Source of the DNA: Peptococcaceae bacterium BRH_c4b
GTDB taxonomy: Bacteria > Bacillota > Desulfotomaculia > Desulfotomaculales > Desulfocucumaceae
Assembly: GCA_000961595.1 (NCBI GenBank)
Contig: LADO01000021.1
Coordinates: 1-64,000 of the forward strand
DNA length: 64,000 nucleotides
Direction: 5' to 3'
Below are positions 11,630-42,840 of this stretch, in pieces (the first letter of the stretch is position 1; each line of letters begins with the position of its first letter). The translations under genes and the position numbers were made by a program. The notes below the pieces were generated by a model. That model made no database searches, was not told the origin of the DNA, and saw only the letters and a list, made by a program, of their open reading frames with translations.

Positions 11630-12337
11630 CTAATTAATGTCATAACAGTATTCTGACTGCTTTTGATGCTTCATTGCTGTTAGCCTGTCAATCCCATGCG
11701 GTATTTCTGTTTTTCGAAATTCCTCATATTCCTTATGTCTTGAGTTTTGAGTATGTTGTACGGGATCATTTACCGTACGTAGGATATTGCTACTCAAGGA
11801 AAACGGTTTGTAATTATCTAATATTTCTTTTAATGACTCTTTGATTTTTGTTTCTGTATCAGTTTTTCCTAAGGCATATGCCAACAAATATAGTATTACT
11901 TGGTTGAGACTTATATCTTGGCTTTTAGATTTAATAATCAATTTCTGATGCAAGTCCTTGGGTAGTCTTAATAATATTCGTCCTGAATATTTATTGTGCT
12001 CGAGAGAAGAGGTTGGAGTTGGAATTTTCTCGTTATCACATAACCTTGAAAATATCCAACCAGTTTTTGCATCATCCAGATTTGATATCGCTTGTTCCTT
12101 AGTTTCACCATGTGTTTTGCATCCTGGTAAATCTGGATGTTCCGCAATCCAATATGATCCGTTTTCGTCATTTACTTTATGAAGTGTTATTGGATAATCA
12201 ATACTTAAAAATGCTTGACACTTCTCATTAATTTTTTCTTCATCTTCTGGAATATCTATATATTGATCAATATTAGGACTATTAAATATCTCAAGGTTAA
12301 CATTTTCTAAATTAAATTTTTTGTTTTTTCTAGTCAT
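11630..12337 (-). CDS. hicB: HicB-type antitoxin with RHH domain, enlarged form
   Basis: The 235-residue protein contains a HicB partial RNase-H-like fold at about residues 44-95 (YWIAEHPDLPGCKTHGETKE, EQAISNLDDA). A ribbon-helix-helix DNA-binding segment follows at about 117-152 (SGRILLRLPKDLHQKL, ISLNQVILYLLAYAL). The flanking ~45 N-terminal and ~80 C-terminal residues exceed the usual 130-150. HicB binds and blocks HicA and represses the operon. The start lies one base beyond the hicA stop, and its ribosome-binding site GAGGAGGAA is made of the last Glu codons of hicA, so translation is tightly coupled. Confidence 0.85.
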   Translation of the reverse strand: MTRKNKKFNLENVNLEIFNSPNIDQYIDIPEDEEKINEKCQAFLSIDYPITLHKVNDENGSYWIAEHPDLPGCKTHGETKEQAISNLDDAKTGWIFSRLCDNEKIPTPTSSLEHNKYSGRILLRLPKDLHQKLIIKSKSQDISLNQVILYLLAYALGKTDTETKIKESLKEILDNYKPFSLSSNILRTVNDPVQHTQNSRHKEYEEFRKTEIPHGIDRLTAMKHQKQSEYCYDIN

Positions 12338-12338
12338 G

Positions 12339-12602
12339 TTATTCCTCCTCCTCTGGACACATATCTAAATGCTCAAGGAGTTCTCTAACGTCATTGATTT
12401 GGTATCTTCTGATGGCTGTATTTTCCATTAATGTAATTGTTTTCTCATAATCTGGGTGTTTAAAGTGCCTATGGCTACCTCCGCTCTTTTTTCTCATACT
12501 ACAACCTATAGATTTCAAAAATCTTGACATGTCATCAAATGAAATGTCATTGGAAATTGGGCCACGGCATAGCCGAAGTAAAAATTTTATGAATGTGCTC
12601 AA
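12339..12602 (-). CDS. hicA: HicA-type mRNA interferase toxin
   Basis: The 87-residue protein carries the HicA double-stranded-RNA-binding-like fold, with the active-site His in KSGGSHRHFKHP (about residues 40-50) and the C-terminal helix YQINDVRELLEHLD. HicA toxins cut mRNA and block translation until bound by HicB. The start is TTG at 12602 with CGGAGGG 6 nt upstream. It is the first gene of a three-gene operon. The N-terminus has about 20 extra residues over short HicA proteins, so an internal start cannot be excluded. Confidence 0.88.
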   Translation of the reverse strand: MSTFIKFLLRLCRGPISNDISFDDMSRFLKSIGCSMRKKSGGSHRHFKHPDYEKTITLMENTAIRRYQINDVRELLEHLDMCPEEEE

Positions 12603-12933: not shown

Positions 12934-12963
12934 TGGTGTCGGAGGCGAGACTTGAACCCGCAC
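12934..12963 (-). pseudogene. 3' end of a tRNA gene (probably tRNA-Leu), 5' part missing
   Basis: The minus strand reads GTGCGGGTTCAAGTCTCGCC followed by TCCGACACCA: a T-arm with the TTCAAGT loop, the 3' acceptor strand and an encoded CCA. The matching 5' acceptor strand, D-arm and anticodon arm are not found upstream; the sequence passes straight into the end of a response-regulator gene. The T-arm matches bacterial tRNA-Leu. It is either the remains of a deletion or a tRNA 3' end carried by an integrated element. Confidence 0.65.
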
Positions 12964-12997
12964 TGTCTCCCATACGCCCCTCAAAAGGGGTATATGG

Positions 12998-13600
12998 CTA
13001 CGATACCATGTTATTCTTAATGGCAAATATGGCCAGTTGGGTCCTGTCTCTCAGACTGGTTTTAGCCAGAATGCTGCTGAGGTGGTTACGCACCGTTCCC
13101 TCGCTTAAGAATAGTTCTCCGGCAATCTCGCGGTTGCTTTTACCCTCCCCCACCAGGCGGGCAATTTCCTTTTCCCTGTCTGTGAGCAGTCTCACCCTTT
13201 CATCCGTTTCCGCCGGAACCGGTTCACTATTGCCCAGCAGGGAAAACCGCCGCACCACTTTGTCGGCCACACCGGACTGCAATAGGGCACCGCCTCTGTA
13301 TACCGTTTTCACCGCAGTGACAATTTCTTCAGGAGTCGATTCCTTTATCAGATATCCGAAAGCCCCCCCGGCAAGAGCGTCAAAAATATAGCCGTCCTCG
13401 TTAAAAGTGGTCAGGATGATTACCCTCACCCCCGGGAAATCCCTGGTTATAGCGGCTGTAGCCTCAACCCCGTTCATGACCGGCATTTTTATATCCATCA
13501 GGACTACATCCGGCCGTTGCCACTTACAGAGGTTATACGGCCTCTTTTCCGTTGCAGGCCGTACCGGTTACGATAATGTCTTCACGGCTTTACATCGTAT
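12998..13600 (-). pseudogene. Truncated and frameshifted NarL/LuxR-family response regulator
   Basis: The frame from 13525 to 12998 holds the phospho-acceptor region PDVVLMDIKMPVMNGVEA, the switch region VIILTTFNEDGYIFDAL, and a LuxR-type HTH (LTDREKEIARLVGEGKSN, LSEGTVRNHLSSILAKT). Upstream the N-terminal receiver continues in another frame (GTACNGKEAV) and joins after a frameshift near 13535. Beyond about 13600 the receiver start is absent. No sensor kinase gene is adjacent. A hairpin at 12970-12997 follows the stop. The output domain could in theory be made from an internal ATG at 13498, but a functional receiver could not. Confidence 0.85.
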
Positions 13601-13774
13601 AACAAAAAGAACATCTCCCATACCCTTTGTGTTGCCTGTTTATCATCGCCTCATAAAGTTACGGTTTTAAAAGCAATATATGGAATGAGATATGATAACA
13701 CAACTTTCCTCCGTGAAATACATATTTTTTTATGATTTTGAAAAAATAACAAAAATATGATTGGAGGTTTCAGT

Positions 13775-14011
13775 ATGCAGGAACAACAGATAACTGTTTA
13801 TACTACCCCTACCTGACCCCATTGCCGCTCGGTGAAAGAGTTTCTTTCCCAAAAAGGCGTGAAATATAAAGAGCAGGACGTGGCCGCAGACCAGCAGGCC
13901 AGAGATGAAATGGTTCAAAAATCGGGCAGGCTGGCAGTTCCGGTGGTTACCGTGGGAGACAAGGTAATAATGGGATATAACCCCTCCGAACTGGAAAAAG
14001 CCCTTCACTAG
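13775..14011 (+). CDS. Glutaredoxin-like selenoprotein (in-frame TGA as selenocysteine)
   Basis: From the ATG at 13775 (GGAGG 7 nt upstream) the frame reads MQEQQITVYTTPT, then TGA at 13814-13816, then PHCRSVKEFLSQKGVKY, and continues to TAG at 14009. With the TGA read as Sec (U14) the product is a 78-residue glutaredoxin/NrdH-like protein with active site U-P-H-C in place of C-P-H-C. It also keeps the cis-Pro region LAVPVVTVGDKVIMGYNPSEL. Replacement of precisely the attacking Cys by TGA in an otherwise intact gene is the mark of a selenoprotein. Homologues with UxxC or CxxC are known in clostridia. It would act in thiol-disulfide exchange in the cytosol. It is flanked by a good terminator. 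Confidence 0.85.
13831..13850 (+). promoter_or_regulatory. Candidate bacterial SECIS hairpin
   Basis: Downstream of the TGA, GAAAG and CTTTC (13834-13848) form a stem with loop AGTTT, 22 nt from the TGA, with G in the second loop position as bacterial SECIS elements require. A competing stem, CTC / GAG with loop GGTGAAA (13828-13840), sits 14 nt from the TGA. Either could serve; folding was done by eye. Confidence 0.45.
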
Positions 14012-14030
14012 ATATAACAAACTGCATAAA

Positions 14031-14072
14031 AAAACAGCGCCCGCTTATGTAGTGATCCGGCGCTGTTTTTTA
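14031..14072 (+). terminator. Terminator after the selenoprotein gene
   Basis: AAACAGCGCC pairs with GGCGCTGTTT across a 17-nt loop and is followed by a T-run, about 20 bp past the TAG. It shows that the TGA-containing frame is a real transcription unit. It can also serve the converging thioredoxin gene. Confidence 0.85.
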
Positions 14073-14116: not shown

Positions 14117-14440
14117 TTAGTCTTCAATAAGCGCATCTAATTTTTTAACCAGAAGGGCTTTGGGAGTCAATCCAACTGTCTGACCTACATTTTGCCCGTT
14201 TTTAAACATAACCAGAGTGGGGATACTCATCACTCCGAAGCGTCTGGCTAATTCCTGGTTTTGATCCACATTGATCTTGGCGATTTTGACCTTGCCCTGG
14301 TACTCAGTGGATAACTCTTCAATTACAGGGGCCATACTGCGGCAAGGCCCGCACCAGGGTGCCCAGAAATCCACCAGAACAGGCTGTTTCGATTGCCCTA
14401 CTTCCGCTTCAAAGTTGCTGTCGTTTAATTCCAGTGCCAC
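14117..14440 (-). CDS. trxA: Thioredoxin
   Basis: The 107-residue protein has the canonical redox site WCGPC in VLVDFWAPWCGPCRSMAP (about residues 19-36) and cis-Pro in GVMSIPTLVMFKNG. It reduces cytosolic protein disulfides using thioredoxin reductase. The GTG at 14440 is chosen as start because GAGGAGAG lies about 7 nt before it and it gives the usual length and N-terminus (VALELNDSNFEAEV). A longer frame would add 21 residues encoded by a REP-like palindrome and the ribosome-binding site. A second thioredoxin lies at 37655. Confidence 0.93.
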   Translation of the reverse strand: MALELNDSNFEAEVGQSKQPVLVDFWAPWCGPCRSMAPVIEELSTEYQGKVKIAKINVDQNQELARRFGVMSIPTLVMFKNGQNVGQTVGLTPKALLVKKLDALIED

Positions 14441-14462
14441 ATCATCTCTCCTCTCTAATGTA

Positions 14463-14497
14463 CGGGGACACACCTTCACGAAGGAATGTCCCCAATT
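14463..14497. repeat. REP-like element, GGGGACA...TGTCCCC family
   Basis: GGGGACACACCTTC pairs imperfectly with GAAGGAATGTCCCC. Related copies occur at 23452-23505, 29394-29514 and 51037-51093. It lies just upstream of the thioredoxin ribosome-binding site and may be part of its leader. Confidence 0.6.
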
Positions 14498-14533
14498 TAT
14501 CAACGAAGACCAACGGCCTCCAAATTATATACC

Positions 14534-39034: not shown

Positions 39035-39414
39035 TCCAGAGTACGAAAACTTGTTTATACGAAATGAACCCCACTAATGCCGTCAAAACCCCAAAATTTC
39101 CTTGAACCTGTTCAAACAGGTGGGTGCCCTCCTGATTGATTTTTACTTCCCTGGTGTTTCAAGGGCATGTAAGCCACAACCAGAGTCCGGACTCCCTTTC
39201 AAGCAGTGTTGGCTCAAAACTTCAGAGTAATCACGCACATAGCAGGGTGTTTTTCTTTGCATATATTATGTTACCATACCGGTGAACCCGTGGCAAGTGC
39301 AGACAAATAGTGCTTTGTTTTGATTATATTATAAAAAATATTTAACCTTCTTATACATGCCTGGATCGACACAATTTGTCCTTTTTCGTCTATCACTCCA
39401 TAATATGGATGCCT
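39035..39414. other. Intergenic region downstream of aspS
   Basis: About 380 bp with no supported gene. CTTGAACCTGTTCAAACAGG near 39101 gives a small hairpin. No clear terminator for aspS was found. Confidence 0.3.
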
Positions 39415-42599: not shown

Positions 42600-42840
42600 G
42601 CCATGCAAAAAATACTGGCCAGGGACGGGAGCAGTTCCCGCGGTGCCACCCTGTTTGGAATAATTCCCTCTTGTCAGGCTTTTAACGGGGCCGCCGTGCC
42701 ACCCTACAGGCCAGTCAGGCCTTCAGGCGCCGCTCCCGGGTGTTCTTTCGGTGTATTCCCGGGGAAGGGCTTGCAGTCCCGGACCCTTCCTCCCTGCTCC
42801 TGAGATGGTACACTTACTTTTCCCGGTCAACACTTTTACT
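42600..42840 (-). promoter_or_regulatory. T-box leader of the hisS-aspS operon, with two T-box motifs
   Basis: On the minus strand the leader contains the T-box AGGGTGGCACCGCGG (42652-42638) followed by the stem GGGAACTGCTCCC, then GTCCCTGGCCAGTATTTTTT, the terminator. A second nearly identical motif, AGGGTGGCACGGCGG (42705-42691), lies 53 bp before it with one mismatch. T-box RNAs bind uncharged tRNA and switch between terminator and antiterminator. The specifier codon (His or Asp) could not be fixed by eye. Confidence 0.88.

What the first reader, a model, noticed from the sequence alone, without database searches (positions are those of the whole stretch)
13775..14011. Hidden glutaredoxin-like selenoprotein with a UxxC active site
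A short frame with a perfect ribosome-binding site and terminator is interrupted only by one TGA, placed at the first Cys of the CxxC redox motif (TPT-U-PHC). Everything around it, including the cis-Pro loop, is conserved. A random nonsense mutation would rarely hit exactly that codon while the rest stays intact. Automatic annotation would drop or split this gene. A candidate SECIS hairpin (13834-13848) lies at the right distance.
Basis: partly seen in the sequence, partly recalled or inferred. Interest (0 to 1): 0.8.

Follow-up and report, generated by a model that had tools for sequence, protein, structure and literature searches.

The report
Selenocysteine-containing glutaredoxin gene in a Desulfocucumis
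A small redox-protein gene that seems broken by a stop codon is really a working selenocysteine gene with its own recoding hairpin, conserved in dozens of anaerobic bacteria; such proteins have been known since 2005, so this is a solid new member rather than a new kind.

Summary
The finding is confirmed, and so is its interpretation. Frame 13775-14011 (+) encodes a 78-residue YruB-type glutaredoxin interrupted only by a TGA (13814-13816) at the first position of the CxxC motif. The host genome (nearest named relative Desulfocucumis palustris) has selA-selB, tRNA-Sec with anticodon TCA, and a selD that itself carries an in-frame TGA. The same TGA is present in 56 distinct sequences (this one included); 11 others have Cys there. 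Codons beyond the TGA are under strong purifying selection (dN/dS about 0.05 against the nearest relative). In the 56 UGA-bearing genes its synonymous codons are frozen (Glu always GAG, Leu 53/56 CTT, Ser always TCN), whereas 10 of 11 Cys versions lack the hairpin. The eleventh (L042) still carries it, apparently a recent Sec-to-Cys change. The kind is not new: UxxC selenoprotein glutaredoxins were reported in 2005-2006, including Moorella, and C. oremlandii Grx1 has been characterised. Two functional points differ from that model: no glutathione-synthesis gene and no Sec-MsrA partner were found. Reductant and target remain open; thioredoxin reductase is the likeliest reductant. No in vivo evidence of Sec insertion was available.

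The parts
13764..13769 (+). Shine-Dalgarno sequence GGAGGT, a few bases before the ATG
   Evidence: read directly
13775..14011 (+). Sec-glutaredoxin gene, 78 codons plus TAG stop, YruB-type, active site UPHC
13814..13816 (+). in-frame TGA read as selenocysteine (residue 14)
   Evidence: same TGA in 56 distinct sequences, Cys codon in 11; complete Sec machinery
13832..13850 (+). SECIS hairpin: G13832-C13850 closing pair, U13833 unpaired or bulged, stem 13834-13838 with 13844-13848, loop 13839-13843 holding G13840-U13841
   Evidence: codon freezing and hairpin energy against synonymous recodings; covariance model built without this sequence finds it at E 3.5e-12 in the window and as best hit in the genome
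14029..14072 (.). bidirectional intrinsic terminator shared with the convergent trxA gene
   Evidence: fold z = -4.96
14117..14503 (-). thioredoxin gene trxA (WCGPC), convergent neighbour, not part of the transcript; its true start probably lies inside this ORF
   Evidence: Pfam Thioredoxin 122.4 bits; thioredoxin genes recur beside the gene in relatives

Best explanation
The gene makes a small cytosolic glutaredoxin-fold oxidoreductase whose attacking residue is selenocysteine. The ribosome reads UGA 13814-13816 as Sec because SelB with Sec-tRNA-Sec binds the hairpin at 13832-13850, which lies inside the coding sequence just downstream. The Sec selenolate (U14) then attacks a protein disulfide or sulfenic acid, and Cys17 resolves the mixed selenide-sulfide. 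Shown here by sequence: the frame, the TGA in place of the catalytic Cys, selection on the codons after it, RNA-level selection on the hairpin, and the complete Sec machinery. Inferred: actual Sec insertion, the redox chemistry (by homology), and recycling by thioredoxin reductase or another thiol donor rather than glutathione.
For: Sec machinery: tRNA-Sec 67.5 bits with TCA anticodon; selA 612.9 bits next to selB 397 bits on one contig; selD 390 bits with its own in-frame TGA. TGA at the catalytic position in 56 distinct sequences, while 11 have TGC or TGT. Downstream codons against nearest relative L015: dN 0.053, dS 0.97. RNA constraint: Glu GAG 55/55 at the hairpin against 81/286 elsewhere in the gene; Leu CTT 53/56 against 36/209; Gln CAA 33/40 against 16/78; Ser TCN 56/56. 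Hairpin more stable than synonymous recodings (mean z -3.3, 91% of genes in the best 5%), but not in 10 of 11 Cys homologues. selA over cut-off in 53 of 56 UGA-bearing genomes; the 3 exceptions are 64-84% complete. The best structural match, 7c10, has Cys13/Cys16 and its sibling 7c12 has Ser16, the same numbering as the C. oremlandii Grx1 U13C/C16S mutants (PMC4479559).
Against: No peptide, Se-75 or readthrough data exist here. Base-pair covariation in the hairpin is weak, because most pairs never vary (24 of 500 shuffles reach the observed score). No Rfam SECIS family matches. No gshA or gshF was found and the only GSH-synthetase-like hit is, judging by its sequence, an unrelated ATP-grasp ORF, so the name 'glutaredoxin' may not describe how it is recycled.
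Confidence: 0.95

Rival explanations
1. Pseudogene: a nonsense mutation truncates an ordinary Cys glutaredoxin.
For: A TGA splits the frame; a neighbouring response-regulator gene (12998-13498) does look truncated.
Against: The same TGA is kept in 56 distinct sequences across families; codons beyond it are under purifying selection; no other stop interrupts the frame.
Confidence: 0.01
2. UGA is read as Cys or Trp by a suppressor tRNA or a changed code, not as Sec.
For: Any UGA readthrough would keep the frame open.
Against: A TCA-anticodon tRNA-Sec and the full sel set are present; the frozen hairpin right after the UGA is what SelB-directed insertion predicts; selA accompanies the UGA form in 53 of 56 genomes.
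Confidence: 0.02
3. The codon freezing reflects protein-level or general codon preference, not an RNA element.
For: Residues V-K-E-F-L-S are also conserved, and they form the helix after the active site in Grx folds (inference).
Against: Freezing is at synonymous positions and against the usage elsewhere in the same genes. Cys homologues keep only K, F/Y and L, use TTA for Leu in 7 of 11, and mostly lack E and S.
Confidence: 0.03

Closest known systems
Clostridium (Alkaliphilus) oremlandii Grx1, selenoprotein glutaredoxin (U13; Kim et al. 2011, cited in PMC13188914; mutants in PMC4479559)
   Same: Sec two residues before the second Cys (UxxC) in a Grx fold of similar length; the closest solved structure (7c10, E 4e-17, CPHC) fits its numbering
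   Different: C. oremlandii Grx1 reduces a selenoprotein MsrA. Here the only MsrA found has no in-frame TGA, and no gshA or gshF was found.
Glutaredoxin (Grx) selenoprotein family of Zhang and Gladyshev (PMC1088965, PMC1794560)
   Same: UxxC, PF00462/COG0695, bacterial SECIS with G in the apical loop, reported in Clostridia including Moorella thermoacetica and Alkaliphilus
   Different: Nothing of principle; no Desulfocucumis member appears in the passages read. The 2006 list gives Desulfotomaculum reducens no selenoprotein Grx.
NCBIfam TIGR02196 (YruB-family glutaredoxin-like)
   Same: Scores above the curated cut-off (95.9 against 88.55)
   Different: The score was obtained with Cys written for Sec; the family name says nothing about Sec
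UXX-star selenoprotein families (NF041212, NF041114, NF041211)
   Same: Grx-like proteins with Sec in the active site
   Different: Scores fall below their cut-offs (63.5 against 66; 39.6 against 72; 45.3 against 100); the review lists other motifs for them (UxxT, GxGU), whereas this protein has UxxC

Membership tests
Selenoprotein glutaredoxin (UxxC) | Glutaredoxin domain PF00462 | tested here: met
   72.8 bits, cut-off 22.9
Selenoprotein glutaredoxin (UxxC) | In-frame UGA at the first Cys of CxxC, with Cys homologues at that site | tested here: met
   56 TGA and 11 TGC/TGT sequences
Selenoprotein glutaredoxin (UxxC) | SECIS-like hairpin just downstream with G in the apical loop | tested here: met
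   hairpin at nt 19-37 from the U of UGA, loop G in 55/56, U in 56/56
Selenoprotein glutaredoxin (UxxC) | Host has selA, selB, selD and tRNA-Sec | tested here: met
Selenoprotein glutaredoxin (UxxC) | Selenocysteine actually present in the protein | not testable with these tools
   needs Se-75 labelling or mass spectrometry
TIGR02196 YruB family | Score above the curated cut-off | tested here: met
   95.9 against 88.55
UXX-star families | Score above the curated cut-off | tested here: not met
   63.5/66, 39.6/72, 45.3/100
Glutathione-dependent glutaredoxin | Host can make glutathione (gshA or gshF) | tested here: not met
   no match to TIGR01435 or PF04262; the PF02955 hit looks like an unrelated ATP-grasp ORF; uptake of glutathione not excluded
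Sec-Grx/Sec-MsrA tandem pair of C. oremlandii | Selenoprotein MsrA in the same genome | tested here: not met
   one MsrA, no stop inside

The most novel reading that the evidence does not exclude
A selenoprotein glutaredoxin widespread in the Desulfotomaculum-Pelotomaculum lineage that works without glutathione: it draws electrons from thioredoxin reductase or a ferredoxin-linked donor and serves targets other than a selenoprotein MsrA. In about a third of the relatives examined it lies beside a conserved convergent block with a triple-HTH regulator, often with thioredoxin.
Probability: 0.35. Interest if true: 0.4.

Novelty: new member of a known kind. Interest (0 to 1): 0.3.

Why it matters
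It shows that this apparent 'broken' gene is a conserved selenoprotein, and it gives a well-supported SECIS consensus (GUGAARGAGUWUCUYUCNC, 15 nt after the UGA) that could help annotate the gene across the lineage. The Cys-coded homologue that still carries the SECIS (L042) is a clear example of a probable recent Sec-to-Cys exchange. Specialists would not be surprised that the family exists.

Tried and rejected
Rfam found no SECIS family at the hairpin, even at relaxed thresholds. Base-pair covariation was too weak to carry the SECIS argument, since most pairs never vary; the synonymous-codon test was used instead. The next-best genome hits of the SECIS model (L129-L131) have no convincing in-frame TGA gene around them and were taken as noise. 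An operon partner was sought: the recurrent downstream neighbours (PBP-like gene, triple-HTH regulator, trx) are on the opposite strand, not co-transcribed. The protein tree is poorly resolved; it needs 6 Sec/Cys changes, of which well-supported branches force only 2. The paper on C. oremlandii Grx1 itself is not held.

Full report
Observation. The window holds a 78-codon frame, 13775-14011 (+), with a GGAGGT ribosome-binding site and one in-frame TGA at 13814-13816. Reading the TGA as Cys gives a clear glutaredoxin: PF00462 72.8 bits, TIGR02196 YruB 95.9 bits against a cut-off of 88.55. The motif is U/C-PHC and the cis-Pro loop is 'AVPVV'. A strong terminator hairpin lies at 14029-14072, between this gene and a convergent thioredoxin gene.

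Sec machinery. The window's own genome (3.62 Mb, 66 contigs, completeness 100) has a tRNA-Sec (67.5 bits, anticodon TCA), adjacent selA and selB on contig C6 (612.9 and 397.1 bits) and selD (390.4 bits), which itself has an in-frame TGA. The nearest named relative is Desulfocucumis palustris NAW-5 (91% identity over the stretch after the TGA).

Conservation of the TGA. In 200 related genomes, the best matches carry exactly one stop, a TGA, inside the aligned frame. After removing duplicates, 56 distinct sequences (this one included) have TGA at the catalytic position and 11 have TGC or TGT. Six fetched loci were skipped because the strict motif search did not catch them. Downstream of the TGA, the comparison with L015 gives dN 0.053 and dS 0.97, and more distant pairs with finite dS give dN/dS 0.10-0.23. 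A truncating mutation cannot explain this. selA is over its cut-off in 53 of the 56 UGA-bearing genomes searched, and the three exceptions are only 64-84% complete; it is over the cut-off in 7 of 12 genomes chosen for Cys forms.

SECIS. Number the bases from the U of UGA. The hairpin runs from nt 19 to 37 (window 13832-13850). In 56 UGA genes, pairs 21-35, 22-34 and 25-31 never vary, 24-32 alternates A-U and G-U, the loop G27 is kept in 55 and U28 in all, and U20 is kept in 54 while the base opposite (36) varies freely. In this genome C36-C37 let G18-G19 pair around a bulged U20. That resembles the bulged U and loop G-U recognised by E. coli SelB in fdhF, a comparison from general knowledge that was not tested.

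The strongest evidence for the SECIS is at synonymous sites. Glu is GAG in 55 of 55 at the hairpin but 81 of 286 elsewhere in the same genes, Leu is CTT in 53 of 56 against 36 of 209, Gln is CAA in 33 of 40 against 16 of 78, and Ser is never AGY. Natural hairpins are more stable than synonymous recodings (mean z -3.3). Ten of eleven Cys homologues show no such hairpin and have mostly lost the E and S residues that encode it; the eleventh, L042, keeps it intact, as expected of a recent Sec-to-Cys change. A covariance model built without the window sequence finds 13826-13855 at E 3.5e-12, with the next hit in the window at 0.41, and it is also the best hit in the genome. Pair covariation is weak and was not relied on.

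Function. By homology the protein is a thiol-disulfide oxidoreductase with Sec14 attacking and Cys17 resolving. The best solved-structure match, 7c10, with its Ser16 sibling 7c12, fits the numbering of C. oremlandii Grx1 U13C and U13C/C16S (PMC4479559); that identification is inferred from the numbering, since the tool gives no organism. In C. oremlandii, glutaredoxin reduces a selenoprotein MsrA (PMC4479559). That pairing is not reproduced here: the one MsrA found has no in-frame TGA. Glutathione-synthesis genes gshA and gshF were not found, and the only GSH-synthetase-like hit looks like an unrelated ATP-grasp ORF. A thioredoxin reductase (398.6 bits) and a second related reductase are present. 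Recycling by thioredoxin reductase is therefore the likeliest, but unproven. The gene appears to be transcribed alone. In about a third of the relatives examined it lies beside the same convergent block with a triple-HTH regulator and a PBP-like gene, and thioredoxin is also a frequent neighbour.

Novelty. Selenoprotein glutaredoxins with UxxC were described in the Sargasso Sea data in 2005 (PMC1088965) and in Moorella thermoacetica, Alkaliphilus and Geobacter in 2006 (PMC1794560), and a 2026 review lists the family with a functional study behind it (PMC13188914). This gene is a well-supported new member of that kind.

Noticed in passing
12998-13498 (-): LuxR-type response regulator lacking the first ~47 positions of its receiver domain; the stretch upstream holds stops and a fragment like the missing part, so it is probably a pseudogene.
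   Followed up: partly
12935-13010 (-): Sequence resembling the 3' half of a tRNA (GCGGGTTCAAGTCTCGCCTCCGACACCA), though ARAGORN finds no tRNA in the window; possibly the attachment-site remnant of an integrated element.
   Followed up: no
11630-12602 (-): HicB-like antitoxin (40.4 bits) next to a weak HicA-like toxin match (26.3 bits, cut-off 27).
   Followed up: no
L012 (G000:C21:23522-24445): selD in the same genome has an in-frame TGA, so selenophosphate synthetase is itself probably a selenoprotein.
   Followed up: partly
L042 (Pelotomaculum sp. PtaU1.Bin035, same as L066): Cys-coded homologue (TGT) that still carries the complete SECIS hairpin: a likely recent Sec-to-Cys change in a genome that keeps selA.
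   Followed up: partly
39064-39251 (-) and 42618-42839 (-): 6S RNA (102.4 bits) and a T-box leader (98.9 bits), both above Rfam gathering scores.
   Followed up: no
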